Source: Oricola indica
Lineage (GTDB): Bacteria > Pseudomonadota > Alphaproteobacteria > Rhizobiales > Rhizobiaceae
NCBI RefSeq assembly: GCF_019966595.1
Contig: NZ_JAINFJ010000007.1
Coordinates: 62,001-126,000, forward strand
DNA: 64,000 nucleotides
Direction of reading: 5' to 3'
Within the stretch, counting starts at the first letter, position 1. Each line of letters starts with the position of its first letter. Both the position numbers and the translations under genes were made by a program. The notes below the pieces were generated by a model. It was not told the origin of the DNA, did no database searches, and worked only from the letters and a program-made list of their open reading frames with translations. Of the stretch, positions 3,549-13,389 are shown in pieces.

Positions 3549-4151
3549 TTACTGTATTGTTCGCGTGACGTCCGCGCCGATGTTTGATTGCGCGACAGGC
3601 TTCGGTTCGTCAACTGGAAAGAAGGTGTAGGAAAGCGTCAGCGTATCGATGTCCTTCAGTTCCTCGGATTTCAAGATGTCCGGGTCGATGAAGAACACGA
3701 TGGGCATGTCGGCGGTTTCGCCTGGAACAAGCGTCTGCTCCGTGAAGCAGAAACACTCGATCTTGTTGAAGTAGGCGCCCGCCGACTGCGGAGTCACGTT
3801 GAATGTTGCCGTGCCCGTTATTGTCTGGGCCGAATTGTTGTGCGCCGTGTAGCCAACCTGCATGGTTTCGCCGATCTTCAATTCGACCTGGCGTTGGTTT
3901 GGCTTGAAATCCCAGTTCACGCCTGCGGTATTTGCGTCGAAACGAACCTTGATCGTTTGGTCGAGGACCTGGATCCCCGCCGTCTGCGCGCGCTGCGTCG
4001 TGCCGCCATAGCCGGTCACCTGGCAGAAAAGGCGATAGAGCGGCACCGAAGCGTAAGCCATGCCGACCATGCCGACGGCAATGCCGAGACCGATCGCGGC
4101 GATCAGACCGTTGCGGCGGCTACTCTTCGATTGTGCGGTTGCCTGGGTCAT
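3549..4151 (-). CDS. ctaG: Cytochrome c oxidase assembly protein CtaG/Cox11
   Basis: Membrane-anchored periplasmic copper chaperone that delivers copper to the CuB site of subunit I. The 200-residue product has one N-terminal helix (about 14-34), then the Cox11 domain with LFCQVTGYGGTTQRA and the copper-binding pair in IECFCFTEQ (C133, C135). The ATG at 4151 is taken because upstream sequence of the longer open frame is the antisense of the CoxF gene. It starts 7 bp after the CoxF-like ORF, so translation is probably coupled. Confidence 0.95.
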   Translation of the reverse strand: MTQATAQSKSSRRNGLIAAIGLGIAVGMVGMAYASVPLYRLFCQVTGYGGTTQRAQTAGIQVLDQTIKVRFDANTAGVNWDFKPNQRQVELKIGETMQVGYTAHNNSAQTITGTATFNVTPQSAGAYFNKIECFCFTEQTLVPGETADMPIVFFIDPDILKSEELKDIDTLTLSYTFFPVDEPKPVAQSNIGADVTRTIQ

Positions 4152-9183: not shown

Positions 9184-9209
9184 CTCACGACGCCTAAATG
9201 AGTCGTGAG
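9184..9209 (+). other. Inverted repeat just before the tldD ribosome-binding site
   Basis: CTCACGAC and GTCGTGAG form a perfect 8-bp stem with a 10-base loop. An ATG in the loop region (9198) is in frame with tldD, but the AAAGGA-spaced ATG at 9225 is the better start. No U-run follows, so it may be a weak terminator of the upstream gene or a leader structure. Confidence 0.4.
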
Positions 9210-9224
9210 ACGAAAGGACTGTCC

Positions 9225-10652
9225 ATGCCCGCCGATTCCATTCCCGACCTGATCAACGCCTTCGATGTGCCGAAGGAGACGCTGCAAGGCGTCGTCGCCG
9301 ATGCGCTGGAAAAAGCCGACGACGGCGAGCTGTTCGTCGAGCACCGCGAATCCGAACAATTGATGTTCGACAATGGACGCCTGAAGACCGGGTCTTTCAA
9401 TACCGGACGCGGCTTCGGCCTGCGCTCGGTCGCCGGCGATGCCGTCGGTTACGCCGAATCCGGCGAACTTTCGCTAGCAGCACTGAAACGCGCGGCGGAC
9501 GCGGTTGGCGCGGTGACCACCGGCTATTCGGGCAAGTATTCCGACGCACCCCAGGGCACGAACCGCAAGCTCTACGGCGACGCCAACCCGATCGGCGAGC
9601 CTTCCTTCGAGACGAAGGTCAAGTTGCTGACCGAGATCGATGCCTACCTGAGGGCGAAGGATCCGCGTGTTCGCCAGGTCAGCGCGTCGCTGGCCGCTTC
9701 ATGGCAGGTGGTGGAAATCCTGCGTGCCGACGGCCATTTCGCCAAGGACGTGCGGCCGCTGACCCGCGTCAACATCTCGGTCATCGTCGGTGACGGCGAC
9801 CGGCAGGAGAGCGGCTCGCATGGCATGGGCGGCCGACAGGAATTCGGCGAATTCATCGCCACCGACACCTGGAAGCACGGCGCCGACCAGGCGTTGCGGC
9901 AGGCACTGGTCAATCTCGACGCGAAACCCGCCCCGGCCGGCACATTCGACATCGTGCTCGGCGCTGGCTGGCCGGGCGTGATGTTGCACGAGGCCGTCGG
10001 CCACGGCCTTGAGGGCGATTTCAACCGCAAGGGCACCTCCGCATTCGCCGGATTGATGGGCGAACAGGTCGCGGCGAAGGGCGTCACTGTCGTCGATGAC
10101 GGTACGATCGAAAACCGGCGCGGCTCTCTTTCTATCGACGACGAGGGGACACCGTCTGGCTACAACGTACTGATCGAGGACGGCAAACTCGTCGGCTACA
10201 TGCAGGACCGGCAAAACGCGCGCCTGATGGGCGTCAAGCCGACCGGCAACGGACGCCGCGAATCCTACGCTCACGTGCCGATGCCGCGCATGACCAACAC
10301 CTACATGCTCGGCGGCGACAAGAGCCCGGAGGAAATCATCGCTTCGGTCGACAAGGGCATTTACGCGGTCTCGTTCGGCGGCGGCCAGGTCGACATCACC
10401 TCCGGCAAGTTCGTCTTCGGCTGCACCGAGGCCTACATGATCGAGAACGGCAAGGTGACGTATCCGGTCAAGGGCGCGATGCTGATCGGAAACGGCCCTG
10501 ACGCCATGCACCGCGTCTCCATGGTCGGAAACGACATGGCACTCGATACCGGTATCGGCATGTGTGGAAAGGCCGGACAGGGCGTGCCCGTCGGCGTCGG
10601 CCAGCCGCATTTGCGCATGGATCAGATGACGGTCGGCGGCACCGAGCGCTAA
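9225..10652 (+). CDS. tldD: Metalloprotease TldD
   Basis: TldD forms a heterodimeric zinc protease with TldE/PmbA that trims peptides such as microcin B17 and CcdA. The 475-residue product has the HExxxH metal motif MLHEAVGHGLEG (H255, E256, H260), RVNISVIVGD, and the C-terminal GMCGKAGQGVPVGVGQPH segment. The start at MPADSIPD is set by AAAGGA 6 bases upstream. No pmbA is present in this window. The last 63 bp (10591-10653) are repeated with 7 mismatches at 12425-12487, on the far side of the reverse transcriptase gene, so the present 3' end may have been supplied by the insert. Confidence 0.95.
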   Translation: MPADSIPDLINAFDVPKETLQGVVADALEKADDGELFVEHRESEQLMFDNGRLKTGSFNTGRGFGLRSVAGDAVGYAESGELSLAALKRAADAVGAVTTGYSGKYSDAPQGTNRKLYGDANPIGEPSFETKVKLLTEIDAYLRAKDPRVRQVSASLAASWQVVEILRADGHFAKDVRPLTRVNISVIVGDGDRQESGSHGMGGRQEFGEFIATDTWKHGADQALRQALVNLDAKPAPAGTFDIVLGAGWPGVMLHEAVGHGLEGDFNRKGTSAFAGLMGEQVAAKGVTVVDDGTIENRRGSLSIDDEGTPSGYNVLIEDGKLVGYMQDRQNARLMGVKPTGNGRRESYAHVPMPRMTNTYMLGGDKSPEEIIASVDKGIYAVSFGGGQVDITSGKFVFGCTEAYMIENGKVTYPVKGAMLIGNGPDAMHRVSMVGNDMALDTGIGMCGKAGQGVPVGVGQPHLRMDQMTVGGTER

Positions 10653-10653
10653 G
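10591..10653 (+). repeat. Left copy of the duplicated tldD tail
   Basis: This is the functional 3' end of tldD. It matches 12425-12487 at 56 of 63 positions, with the first 20 and last 20 or so bases nearly identical. The differences fall mostly at codon third positions and leave the encoded tail unchanged except Gln to Ala. The similarity ends right after the stop codon. Confidence 0.92.
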
Positions 10654-10655
10654 GC

Positions 10656-10714
10656 TACCTTTTTAGGTAAAGACCAATATCGACCTGAGGTCCATCCCAC
10701 GGCATTGACATGCC
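10656..10714 (+). other. Short inverted repeats in the leader of the reverse transcriptase gene
   Basis: Within 60 bp there are two hairpins: TACCT-TTTT-AGGTA just after the tldD stop, and GGCAT-TGAC-ATGCC at 10701-10714. A palindrome TATTGCAATA follows at about 10738-10747. They could be the tldD terminator, part of the insert boundary, or a short structured RNA in front of the reverse transcriptase. There is too little sequence to decide. Confidence 0.35.
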
Positions 10715-10763
10715 AAAACTACAAATGCGACCGTGCCTATTGCAATAGCTAAAGGCCTTACTT

Positions 10764-12386
10764 GTGTCGTTAAGTAGATCAAAGCGGTTTAGTTTGCTGC
10801 TGGAAAGAGGGATGTTTCCGGAAGAACTCCCCCCGCCGTTCGTGACCTATAAACTTGCTAGATACAGGGAAAGCATCCTAGCTTGCTGGAATCCGCTGCA
10901 AGCCCCAAAGCCCTTCAACTTCGAATCATATTCGTATCCGCGGCTTGGACGTCAAAGACGTCGTTTGGCCGTCGTAAATCCGATTCCTCAAACCCTGTTA
11001 TGCGATCTGATATCGAGGAATTGGCAGGAGATCTATAAACACATTTCTACATCTCAAGTTTCACTCGATACACCAACAATTCTTGACGACGCTGAGCGAG
11101 CGGTGCCTAAGCCCGATTTCGATTTTATTGCATTAAAGAGACTGGATGTCGGCTCTACATACAATCACATCTTGCTGTCAGACATTTCTCGTTTCTATGG
11201 GACAATATACACCCATGTAATCCCATGGGCTTTGCATGGAAAAGATTGGTGCAAAGCCAATCTCCATACTCAGGCGCTAGCTAATAGCTTGGGAGAGAAA
11301 CTGGATCGCCACTTGCGAAAAGGTCAGGATAACCAGACGCTTGGCATCCCAGTAGGACCAGATACTTCGCGGATAATTTCAGAAATTGTCGCCGTGTCTA
11401 TCGAAAAAGGATTTCTCGCCTCCGAGGGAGTCACAGCTGAACAAGTTTTTCGTTATGTTGACGACTGGTTCATTGGATATGATACGGCCGGTGAGGCGGA
11501 AGACGCCATCGCTTTTCTTTCAAGTTCGTCCCTTAAGTTCGAGCTTGAGTTGAACCACGAAAAAACACGAATTATCGAACCGATGGATTCGCTCCAGGAA
11601 CTGTGGCCATCAGATATCCGGAGCACTGTAGTTAGGAACACTGTCAAGTCACAAGCTTACGACCTACAAACATTTTTTACTAAAGCATTCAATTACTCGA
11701 CGAATTATCCAAATGAGAATGTTTTATTCTATGCTATAAAATTAGCCAGGTCATTTACTATTAGAAACGAAAACACCGAGATTTTTGAAAACTATCTACT
11801 GCGAGCCGCGCGAGCCAATCAAACAACGATTCCTATAGTAACGCAAATTTTAGCCACCAACCATCAACGCCCAGAAGCTTCACAACAAAAAATCCGCAAG
11901 TTTATTCACGATACCATACAACGTTGCGCTCCAGTTGGCTTTCATGGTGAAATCGCGTGGGTCTTATTTCTTGCAAAAAGCTTAGAAATAACAATCGAGG
12001 AAGCCACTATAAATTTGGTATCTAAATTGGAGAGTTCAGTTTGCGCTCTTCTAACTCTCGACTTAAGGAATAAAGGGCTCATAAAAGGGAATGTTGATAC
12101 TGCATTCTGGTCTTCATTTATGAATCCTGACTCGCTACATTCATCAATGTGGCTGCTCGCTTACGAAGCGGACTTAAAAAACTGGCTTCCATCTCCTTTG
12201 AATCACGTTAGCAATCATACACATTTTAGTGTTTTAAAGTCTAAAAACGTAGAATTTTACGATTCCAGCAAACTTATAGAAAGCAAAGAAGAGTCTGTAG
12301 CGAGAGAATTCAAAGTTGTTAACAGAAAAATAGAGAAGTCTAGATTGAAAAACATACTTTATTATCTATCACAGAGATCAATCTAA
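10764..12386 (+). CDS. Defence-type reverse transcriptase (DRT/Abi-like, group unassigned)
   Basis: A 540-residue protein with a reverse transcriptase core and a long alpha-helical C-terminal half. Visible motifs are LSDISRFYGTIYTHVIPWALHGK (motif A, D140), GQDNQTLGIPVGPDTSRII (motif B, 187-205), FRYVDDWFIGYD (catalytic YVDD, 231-234) and LNHEKTRI (264-270). The absence of a maturase or group II intron signature, the 'IPWALHGK' and 'GPDTSRIISE' segments and the helical tail resemble UG/Abi antiphage enzymes (DRT systems, AbiA/AbiK-like); I cannot assign a DRT type by eye. Translation starts at GTG with AAAGG 8 bases upstream. Its GC is far below that of its neighbours (28% in a hand-counted 60-bp line). 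It stands alone between duplicated tldD tails, with no integrase. Confidence 0.88.
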   Translation: MSLSRSKRFSLLLERGMFPEELPPPFVTYKLARYRESILACWNPLQAPKPFNFESYSYPRLGRQRRRLAVVNPIPQTLLCDLISRNWQEIYKHISTSQVSLDTPTILDDAERAVPKPDFDFIALKRLDVGSTYNHILLSDISRFYGTIYTHVIPWALHGKDWCKANLHTQALANSLGEKLDRHLRKGQDNQTLGIPVGPDTSRIISEIVAVSIEKGFLASEGVTAEQVFRYVDDWFIGYDTAGEAEDAIAFLSSSSLKFELELNHEKTRIIEPMDSLQELWPSDIRSTVVRNTVKSQAYDLQTFFTKAFNYSTNYPNENVLFYAIKLARSFTIRNENTEIFENYLLRAARANQTTIPIVTQILATNHQRPEASQQKIRKFIHDTIQRCAPVGFHGEIAWVLFLAKSLEITIEEATINLVSKLESSVCALLTLDLRNKGLIKGNVDTAFWSSFMNPDSLHSSMWLLAYEADLKNWLPSPLNHVSNHTHFSVLKSKNVEFYDSSKLIESKEESVAREFKVVNRKIEKSRLKNILYYLSQRSI

Positions 12387-12424
12387 TATATTAATTCTAC
12401 TCTCTGAATGTTGAAAATTCGCTT

Positions 12425-12487
12425 TCGGCGTCGGCCAGCCGCATCTCCGGATGGACGCGATGACGGTTGGCGGCACCGAGCGCTAAG
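12425..12487 (+). repeat. Right copy of the tldD tail (orphan 3' end)
   Basis: It reads in frame as GVGQPHLRMDAMTVGGTER and a TAA stop, i.e. the last 19 residues of TldD, with no start or upstream gene body. The matching end of tldD lies 1,834 bp upstream. It is probably the ancestral tldD 3' end, stranded when the insert arrived with its own tail; the reverse assignment cannot be excluded. Confidence 0.9.
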
Positions 12488-12495
12488 CTCTCTCC

Positions 12496-12834
12496 TTAGT
12501 CGTCTATCGTTGCGGGCGGGCGGACTGTTTCCGGCAGGAAATGGCCTATATCGTCCCACATGTCCTGGATCCCGCCCAGGACAGTGATGTTGCTTTCATG
12601 CGTCGTGCCGAGAGCGACAACCCGGCGCAAAGCCGAGACGTCGAGTACCGCGAAACGCCGCGCGACATGGCCTATGGCATGGGCGCATTCGCTTATCAGG
12701 AAGGCGATTTCGTCGTCATCGGCGATTTCTCCGCGCCATGCTTCGGCCGCGCCAAGACTTGCGTCGAGTGCAGCGCGGATCTCATCGAGCGATTCCGAAT
12801 GGATCGCGATACCCGCCAAGTCTGCCGGCTTCAT
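12496..12834 (-). CDS. Small hypothetical protein
   Basis: A 112-residue predicted cytoplasmic protein starting MKPADLAGIAIHSESLDE and ending PPATIDD, with no family that I recognise. It is acidic and mostly helical, with one fairly hydrophobic middle segment (DDEIAFLISECAHAIGHVARRFAVLDV). Its GC is like the chromosome rather than the adjacent reverse transcriptase insert. It converges on the stranded tldD tail with 8 bp between them, so it is probably the original downstream neighbour of tldD. An overlapping plus-strand open frame (12541-13047) looks less protein-like. Confidence 0.6.
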   Translation of the reverse strand: MKPADLAGIAIHSESLDEIRAALDASLGAAEAWRGEIADDDEIAFLISECAHAIGHVARRFAVLDVSALRRVVALGTTHESNITVLGGIQDMWDDIGHFLPETVRPPATIDD

Positions 12835-13043
12835 TGGACGATCTCCGATTTCGGTCCGTTTCCGGGAAACAATAAGCAGCCGATCGCGGTGTTGTCGTCA
12901 AGCAAACGAAGGAGGCTCTCGGCGCAAGGCTGCTCAGAAATTTCCTTGTTCGGGCGACGCGGTCATGGTCCGTGCGATCGATCCGGTGCGCGACATGCTG
13001 AAGGCGTTCGTCGAAGATATCTGACGCGGCCGGCCAAGCGGGA

Positions 13044-13072
13044 TTGACCTCGCTCGCGCTTGTGCCTATATG
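13044..13072 (+). promoter_or_regulatory. Sigma70-type promoter of tRNA-Glu
   Basis: TTGACC (-35) and TATATG (-10) are separated by exactly 17 bp, and the -10 ends 16 bp before the mature tRNA 5' end. This is the clearest housekeeping promoter in the window. Confidence 0.75.
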
Positions 13073-13088
13073 CGCCTCTTCCGCGCAC

Positions 13089-13163
13089 GCTCCCATCGTC
13101 TAGCGGTTAGGACGCCGCCCTCTCACGGCGGAAACAGGGGTTCGATTCCCCTTGGGAGTACCA
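13089..13163 (+). tRNA. tRNA-Glu (anticodon CUC)
   Basis: All four arms can be folded: the acceptor pairs GCTCCCA with TGGGAGT (first pair G-U), the anticodon stem CCGCC/GGCGG encloses loop CTCTCAC with anticodon CTC, and the T arm carries GGTTCGATTCC. The discriminator A is followed by an encoded CCA at 13161-13163. It decodes GAG. The gene stands alone behind its own promoter. Confidence 0.95.
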
Positions 13164-13389
13164 GCGATTTCCATCACTTGGCCGATCATCTCTGCTCTAT
13201 GTGCAGCATTCGCGGAACGTCGCGATGGAACCCGGTGCTTGGATTCACCCATCACAATCGGTCATCGATGATCGGCCGCAGACACCCCACATTGAATAGC
13301 ACCGAGTTTGACAGACGCCCTCGATGCTCACCTTCAGCTGTCGTTCGAACCCGATGGGTGATTCGCTGAGGCCGATTCGCTCGCGTGAA

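What the first reader, a model, noticed from the sequence alone, without database searches (positions are those of the whole stretch)
10591..12487. A defence-type reverse transcriptase sits between two copies of the tldD 3' end
The last 63 bp of tldD (10591-10653) recur at 12425-12487 with 56 of 63 positions matching, in the same orientation and frame, including the stop codon. Between them lies a 1.77-kb low-GC segment holding a single UG/Abi-like reverse transcriptase. The mismatches are mostly synonymous, so the second copy looks like a diverged tldD tail from another strain rather than a fresh duplication. This is what a tail-restoring integration or homologous exchange at tldD would leave. 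It suggests the tldD 3' end as a cargo hotspot, with no integrase visible.
Basis: partly seen in the sequence, partly recalled or inferred. Interest (0 to 1): 0.85.

Follow-up and report, generated by a model that had tools for sequence, protein, structure and literature searches.

The report
Defence gene inserted at tldD end
A bacterial anti-virus gene (a DRT6 reverse transcriptase) appears to have been swapped in next to the end of a housekeeping gene, leaving the displaced old gene end behind as a scar; a few related bacteria carry the same kind of scar beside other genes, so this spot may collect new genes without a dedicated insertion enzyme.

Summary
In detail: the last 63 bp of tldD recur 1,834 bp downstream (56/63), flanking a 1,771-bp, 42% GC insert with one gene, an intact DRT6 reverse transcriptase (PADLOC Drt6 561 bits; model closest to PDB 9wy8, hexameric DRT6, TM 0.87/0.95). 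The two tails look like alleles of a working tldD: 4 of 5 differing codons are synonymous. The genome has one tldD. Five congeners have one tail and no such RT.
The scar recurs: 4 more same-family genomes (5 of 282 with a detectable tail, window included; 297 searched) have displaced tldD tails 0.6-3.9 kb downstream, beside other cargo. In two species of one genus, two tail-plus-cargo units appear in opposite order. Clear copies end within 7 bp of the stop codon but start at different points (-37 to -182). A truncated DUF302 gene marks a non-homologous junction in the window.
Best reading: homology-facilitated illegitimate recombination. Incoming DNA pairs with tldD, joins illegitimately on the right, and displaces the old tail when that join falls inside tldD. 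A trans-acting integrase is not excluded. Enrichment over other genes is only suggestive (p 0.02; 0.06 without the window; 0.26 counting every background repeat).

The parts
9198..10652 (+). tldD (484 aa), complete; its last ~60 bp are the left tail
   Evidence: Pfam PmbA_TldD 1st/2nd/3rd domains; single full copy in the genome
10591..10653 (+). left tldD tail: the functional gene end, inferred to have come in with the RT
   Evidence: repeat D1; differs from the right copy at 7 nt, 5 codons, 4 synonymous
10654..10763 (+). 110-bp leader between the tldD stop and the RT start; no Rfam RNA there
   Evidence: sequence; Rfam scan of 10400-13200 at E<=0.1 matches only the tRNA position
10764..12386 (+). 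DRT6 (UG12-type, recalled label) reverse transcriptase, 540 aa, YVDD motif and helical C-terminal domain
   Evidence: PADLOC Drt6 561.6 bits against Drt4 499.7; RVT_1; AlphaFold pLDDT 92.6, best PDB match 9wy8 hexameric DRT6
12387..12424 (.). 38-bp AT-rich stretch; the inferred illegitimate right junction lies at about 12424/12425
   Evidence: sequence; repeat begins at 12425
12425..12487 (+). right tldD tail: the displaced old gene end, inferred non-functional
   Evidence: repeat D1; lone tail hit in the own genome
12496..12834 (-). 112-aa orphan ORF, possible cargo of an earlier unit (right tail + this ORF)
   Evidence: 1 degraded 46% relative in 198 other family genomes; no Pfam, PADLOC or NCBIfam match
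12915..13024 (+). decayed 3' remnant of the DUF302 gene that lies between tldD and tRNA-Glu in congeners; marks a non-homologous right junction of the earlier event
   Evidence: alignment with L033-L036; the L034 gene matches Pfam DUF302
13089..13163 (+). tRNA-Glu (CTC), conserved right anchor of the variable interval in the genus
   Evidence: ARAGORN; matches in the five congeners

Best explanation
The tldD 3' end is an entry site for new genes, used by homologous recombination on one side and illegitimate joining on the other (homology-facilitated illegitimate recombination, HFIR). Incoming DNA from a relative carries the end of that relative's tldD plus whatever follows it. It pairs with the recipient's tldD (homologous left side, which leaves no scar) and its other end is joined at a non-homologous place. 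If the join falls downstream, native genes are replaced or cut (here DUF302). If it falls inside the recipient's own tldD, the old gene end is pushed to the right of the cargo and stays as a tail copy (here 63 bp). In the window at least two such events are stacked: first [tldD tail + 112-aa gene], joined inside DUF302; later [tldD tail + DRT6 RT], joined about 60 bp before the end of the old tldD. Shown: tail copies, allele-like divergence, absence of the RT from congeners, recurrence with other cargo, swapped unit order, truncated DUF302. Inferred: order of events, RecA dependence, route of DNA entry. The cargo is expected to act as a single-gene abortive-infection system like DRT4/DRT6; that function is inferred from homology.
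For: (1) Displaced tails in 5 genomes including the window: G000, G130, G1038, G134 and G1017, among 282 with a tail of 297 searched (G1017's copy is 31 bp and rests on the DNA comparison). (2) The right edge of each of these copies lies within 7 bp of the end of the tldD stop codon, while left edges differ: -182 (G130), -150 (G134), -87 or by eye about -59 (G1038), -61 (window), -37 (G1017), counted from the end of the stop codon. That is expected if left edges are illegitimate junctions and right edges mark where different downstream cargo begins. (3) In genus g126, G130 reads tldD-A-tail-B and G1038 reads tldD-B-tail-A', each tail keeping its own stop codon (TGA with A, TAG with B). (4) The window's DUF302 gene is a truncated remnant joined to other sequence. 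(5) In G001 a 158-aa gene sits between the tldD stop (+8) and sequence that in G003 begins at +10, with no tail copy: by inference the same kind of insertion with the join just downstream. (6) No phage record carries the tail peptide. (7) HFIR is an established process, proposed for stacked gene arrays at Vibrio T6SS loci (PMC5361080, passages read) and for dimorphic loci in E. coli (PMC2884548, passages read).
Against: No second strain of the species was available, so the filled and empty site were never compared directly. A scan of tldD against the four congeners that aligned showed no clear recombinant tract, but about 15% divergence makes it insensitive. The window and G1038 copies begin at the same bases (TTCGGCGTCGGCCA), which a site-specific crossover would predict. 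Both window tails end in CGCTAAG, unlike the five congeners (CGG or CGA, then TAG), so donor and recipient must be close kin. A weak third copy in G130 ends 21 bp short of the stop-codon end. 0 of the 85 loci that were not chosen for a second tail has a clear tail copy. Enrichment over other genes is weak: 4/282 against 1/771 gives p 0.02, but p 0.26 if all five background repeats are counted, and p 0.06 without the window.
Confidence: 0.6

Rival explanations
1. Site-specific, tail-restoring integration: a tyrosine or serine recombinase (acting in trans, or lost) uses the tldD 3' end as attB; the cassette brings a replacement tail and the old tail becomes the right att half-site.
For: Gene end restored and old end displaced; right edge at the stop codon; the window and G1038 copies start at the same bases. 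A relative of this RT in a Sporomusaceae MAG (L105) lies between two copies (83 bp, 95%) of a stretch that begins with the rlmH 3' end, the site used by SCC elements (rlmH name and SCC site recalled). The genome does hold 9 tyrosine-recombinase-type hits elsewhere that could act in trans.
Against: Left edges of the copies differ by up to ~145 bp; no integrase noticed between the tails of the five genomes by reading the ORFs and the Pfam results of most of them; no PF00589 hit on the window contig; no tail peptide in phage records and no exact match of one degenerate tail pattern in viral contigs (that pattern also misses many true tails). Serine recombinases, and ccr in L105's genome, were not searched for.
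Confidence: 0.22
2. Local tandem duplication of the tldD end followed by insertion of the RT between the copies and drift of the right copy.
For: Needs only common events; both tails share CGCTAAG.
Against: 4 of 5 codon differences are synonymous although a dead copy should drift freely (random expectation 23% synonymous), and the Q/A difference is a natural variant in congeners. It does not explain swapped tail-plus-cargo order in G130 and G1038.
Confidence: 0.1
3. The RT itself drives its spread: a retro-mobile unit that copies the flanking gene tail.
For: A ~2-kb solo-RT unit is 86-95% identical in Nitratireductor, Devosia and Erythrobacter at different places.
Against: Only 1 of 70 RT relatives with sufficient flanks has a clear gene-end repeat around the RT (L105); in the other four tail-duplicated tldD loci the ORFs between the tails are not RTs.
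Confidence: 0.03

Closest known systems
DRT6 and DRT4 defence reverse transcriptases
   Same: Single-gene, Abi-type fold, YVDD active site; best model match is hexameric DRT6 9wy8
   Different: 32% identical to 9wy8 in the structural alignment; closest relative found 49% identical in its best segment. Activity untested
Homology-facilitated illegitimate recombination arrays, e.g. orphan immunity genes behind Vibrio T6SS effectors (PMC5361080, passages read)
   Same: New module enters behind a conserved anchor, old 3' material is pushed back, stacks build up, no integrase known
   Different: The anchor is a single-copy housekeeping gene, and the displaced piece is the end of that gene rather than an immunity gene
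Defence hotspots between core genes (PMC10121019, PMC10250203: search listing with start of abstract only)
   Same: Variable cargo between conserved neighbours
   Different: Here the entry event leaves a readable scar, the displaced gene end; cargo is small and mixed
SCC-type elements at rlmH (recalled)
   Same: Gene end repeated at both sides of cargo; an RT relative sits between such repeats in L105
   Different: SCC uses Ccr serine recombinases and a fixed site (recalled); tldD copies have variable left edges and no recombinase was found

Membership tests
DRT6 reverse transcriptase | Sequence family match better than to sister classes | tested here: met
   PADLOC Drt6 561.6 bits, Drt4 499.7. 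NCBIfam lists no Drt6 model for it; its Drt4 model scores 210.5, below that model's cut-off 450
DRT6 reverse transcriptase | Fold of a solved DRT6 | tested here: met
   9wy8 rank 1, TM 0.87/0.95, 1.9 A; DRT4 and UG15 chains next at TM 0.76-0.79 by query length
DRT6 reverse transcriptase | Intact active site (YVDD and the conserved GIPVGPDTSR stretch) | tested here: met
   D233, D234, G194, G198 and D200 invariant in both alignments
DRT6 reverse transcriptase | Anti-phage activity and DNA product | not testable with these tools
   needs experiment
Site-specific integrative element with tail restoration | Recombinase in the element or nearby | tested here: not met
   insert holds only the RT; none of 9 PF00589 hits lies on the contig; serine recombinases not searched
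Site-specific integrative element with tail restoration | Constant crossover point | tested here: inconclusive
   left edges differ among the 5 genomes, but the window and G1038 seem to share one
Homology-facilitated illegitimate recombination | One homologous side, one non-homologous junction | tested here: inconclusive
   non-homologous joins seen in DUF302 and at the left edges of tail copies; the homologous side inside tldD could not be mapped
Homology-facilitated illegitimate recombination | RecA dependence, uptake of linear DNA | not testable with these tools
   needs experiment

The most novel reading that the evidence does not exclude
tldD tails are portable homology arms: units of [tldD tail + cargo] circulate within this bacterial family by general recombination alone, each new unit entering at the tldD stop codon and pushing older units back. 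This would be an integron-like cassette stack without an integrase, feeding defence and toxin-antitoxin genes into the chromosome.
Probability: 0.2. Interest if true: 0.75.

Novelty: new variant of a known kind. Interest (0 to 1): 0.45.

Why it matters
Defence genes often appear between core genes with no sign of how they got there. A displaced end of the anchoring gene is a readable scar of one route, integrase-free exchange, and gives a simple way to look for it: search for a second, diverged copy of a core gene's last 30-180 bp a few kb downstream. If it holds at strain level, integrase-less defence hotspots could be ordered and dated from such scars.

Tried and rejected
RT-driven mobility: the repeat test on RT relatives was given 79 of the 80 loci (L072, identical to L071, left out); 9 with a flank under 300 bp were dropped; 6 of the remaining 70 had a direct repeat at E<=1e-5 within 3 kb. 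One (L105) is a gene-end repeat; those in L097, L106, L129, L138 and L145 look like dispersed repeats or paralogues and were not pursued. With 4-kb flanks (37 loci) L098 also shows one, in a paralogous small gene. Solo-RT unit of L070/L071: no 10-bp direct repeat between its outer zones. Phage carriage of the tail: none in phages; 0 exact matches of one degenerate tail pattern in viral contigs; a search with other TldD peptides also found nothing there. The 4 plasmid hits (E about 9) are on 3.5-3.7 Mb Sinorhizobium records, one annotated tldD, probably chromosomes. Recombinant tract in tldD: no clear signal (locus L005 was mis-oriented there and its row must be ignored, so four congeners count). 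Which tail is native: the two tails are about equally close to the five congeners, undecided. Order-wide search: no second tail at E<=0.01 other than the window's in 152 tail-bearing of 297 genomes, but the window's tail as query is less sensitive there. L195, L222 and L229 gave weak plus-strand hits (8 of 90 loci on the plus strand, 5 of 90 on the minus-strand control at E<=5e-3), at a level also seen in the control, so they are not counted. One genome, G1043 (9% contamination), has two full tldD tails on different contigs and is not counted. ncRNA: none beside the tRNA.

Selection bias, stated plainly: L167-L170 were fetched because one search had shown second tails in their genomes; the other 85 fetched loci, 60 of them taken from the coordinates listed, have none. 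The fair count is 5 of 282, window included. The control (780 ORFs of at least 200 aa in fetched loci and window) used another method (DNA, at least 45 bits, within 4.5 kb) and includes loci around RTs and some tldD genes; 771 is my estimate of the non-tldD number. Family and genus of the G genomes are given by number only; that the family is Rhizobiaceae is my inference from genome sizes and neighbours and was not tested.
Full report
WHAT IS THERE. The 63-bp repeat is real: 10591-10653 and 12425-12487, 56 of 63, direct, 1,834 bp apart. The left copy is the end of the complete tldD (9198-10652; Pfam domains). The own genome has one full tldD, one distant paralogue and the lone second tail. Between the tails are 1,771 bp at 42% GC in a 61% GC window, with one gene, 10764-12386.

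THE CARGO. The 540-aa protein is a DRT6 reverse transcriptase. PADLOC Drt6 scores 561.6 bits, Drt4 499.7. The AlphaFold model (33-sequence alignment, pLDDT 92.6, pTM 0.90) matches 9wy8, 'hexameric DRT6', at TM 0.87/0.95, ahead of DRT4/UG15, AbiK and Abi-P2. The active-site aspartates are intact. A 2026 review describes DRT4 as a single-gene system that makes template-independent ssDNA, which becomes toxic when phage ORF55 protects it, and says ORF55 also activates DRT6 (PMC13213688, passages read). I infer the same kind of abortive defence here. The gene is rare: no match in the 5 congeners, and among 200 relatives 5 distant matches, the best-scoring at 30% identity; 5 of 384 other genomes of the class at E<=1e-30; 2 of 397 others of the phylum (the sets overlap). 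In the named genome collection 393 stretches encode relatives, of which the best 80 were kept; the closest are 43-49% identical (an alphaproteobacterial MAG, Tabrizicola, Phenylobacterium, Nitratireductor, Devosia, Erythrobacter, Thioclava). A solo-RT unit of about 2 kb is 86-95% identical in Nitratireductor, Devosia and Erythrobacter at different places, so such RTs can travel alone.

THE TAILS ARE ALLELES. Seven differences fall in five codons; four codons are synonymous and the fifth is Q/A, both found in congeners. A dead copy drifting since the insertion would not look like this. The two tails differ from each other by 7 of 60 and from the congeners' tails by 7 to 12 of 60, so the second allele comes from a near relative.

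THE SITE IN RELATIVES. The five congeners have one tail. Between tldD and tRNA-Glu all five have a DUF302 gene (Pfam-tested for L034 only) and different further genes: an NTP_transf_8-type nucleotidyltransferase with palindromic TTACAGACA motifs in front in L033 and L036, others elsewhere. In the window DUF302 is only a decayed 3' part (12915-13024), preceded by sequence with the 112-aa orphan gene. So the window appears to have lost native sequence and gained two foreign pieces.

THE SCAR RECURS. A 28-aa tail search of 297 family genomes found the tail in 282, window included. The 48 other genomes that by my reading had more than one hit were searched again so that every hit was listed; most second hits are weak (E 0.03-0.5) and elsewhere. 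Second tails downstream of tldD on the same strand were found in G130 (g126, 93% over 180 bp, with a weak third copy), G1038 (g126, 87% over 84 bp), G134 (g130, 84% over 152 bp) and G1017 (g47, 87% over 31 bp), besides the window. Between the tails: a cation-efflux gene, a MerR regulator and a RES-domain gene (G130); DUF3291 (G1038); a RES-domain gene (G134); NTP_transf_8 (G1017). After the copy in G1038 lies a DUF4268 protein matching PADLOC candidate PDC-S11 at 305 bits; the NTP_transf_8, RES and DUF3291 proteins tested have no PADLOC match. In an anchored, ungapped test over 90 loci these five score 15.5 to 56.5; the other 85 reach at most 12.5 and the minus-strand control 11.5. The G1017 unit, tail plus NTP_transf_8, aligns without a break to the same unit in congener G003 over 1,076 bp at 73%. 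RES-domain-type genes lie near tldD in 15 of the 90 loci.

ORDER SWAP. G1038 from -98 to +646 (its tldD end plus DUF3291) aligns to G130 at +2486 to +3234, which is G130's displaced tail plus DUF3291. G1038's displaced tail and the next 119 bp align to the real tldD end of G130 and what follows it (positions there are counted from the last codon). The stop codons follow the cargo: TAG with DUF3291 in both, TGA with the other unit in both. Beyond those bases the second unit differs: DUF4268 in G1038, cation efflux in G130. Each species thus has the other's unit in front of its own. This is what reciprocal import of tldD-linked DNA would leave.

MECHANISM. Right edges of the five copies lie within 7 bp of the stop-codon end, left edges range from -37 to -182. 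With a site-specific enzyme the left edge should be constant. With HFIR the left edge is wherever the free end of incoming DNA was joined; the right edge lies where the two alleles' downstream regions begin to differ, at the stop codon. HFIR also explains the cut DUF302 and the tail-less insertion at +8/+10 in G001. Kirchberger et al. proposed HFIR for stacked immunity genes (PMC5361080, passages), and PMC2884548 describes homology-assisted illegitimate joining for dimorphic loci (passages). Against this stands the shared start of the window and G1038 copies.

HOW STRONG. Among 780 control ORFs with a tail search by DNA, there were two tldD hits (window, L169) and five others, of which one (L113) looks like a gene-end copy. 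4/282 against 1/771: p 0.02; counting all five background repeats p 0.26; without the window p 0.06. I therefore call tldD a recurrent site, not a proven hotspot. In the RT relatives 1 of 70 loci shows a clear gene-end repeat around the RT (L105, rlmH by recall).

NOVELTY. A search for tldD with 'integration site' and 'genomic island' gave one paper, where tldD occurs once, in a table of plastic regions in Photorhabdus and Xenorhabdus. Searches on illegitimate recombination, defence islands and gene tails listed no title or abstract start reporting displaced core-gene ends at tldD; one search listed 20 of 12,812 papers and 10 of 106, and subscription papers are mostly not held. I rate this a new variant of a known kind: a known recombination process at a newly noticed anchor, with a DRT6 as cargo.

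Noticed in passing
L105 9380-11705: Sporomusaceae MAG: a DRT6-like RT between two copies (83 bp, 95%) of a stretch beginning with the 3' end of a gene I take to be rlmH, an SCC-like site, with an inverted repeat inside the copies.
   Followed up: partly
L070 9719-11843, L071 9726-11775, L073 9915-11760: Solo-RT unit of ~2 kb, 86-95% identical in Nitratireductor, Devosia and Erythrobacter, in different gene neighbourhoods; no direct repeats found at its ends.
   Followed up: partly
L033, L034, L036, L037, L170, downstream of tldD: Palindromic TTACAGACA...TGTCTGTAA motifs in front of an NTP_transf_8-type gene (L033, L036, L170) or without it (L034, L037); absent from the window.
   Followed up: partly
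L071 and L072: Identical 21.5-kb stretches at two places of one Devosia epidermidihirudinis contig, in opposite orientation: large inverted duplication or assembly artefact.
   Followed up: no
window 12496-12834: 112-aa orphan ORF with a degraded relative in 1 of 198 other family genomes and no family match.
   Followed up: partly
L167 about +3795..3851 from the tldD stop: Weak third tldD tail in G130, suggesting a stack of three units.
   Followed up: partly
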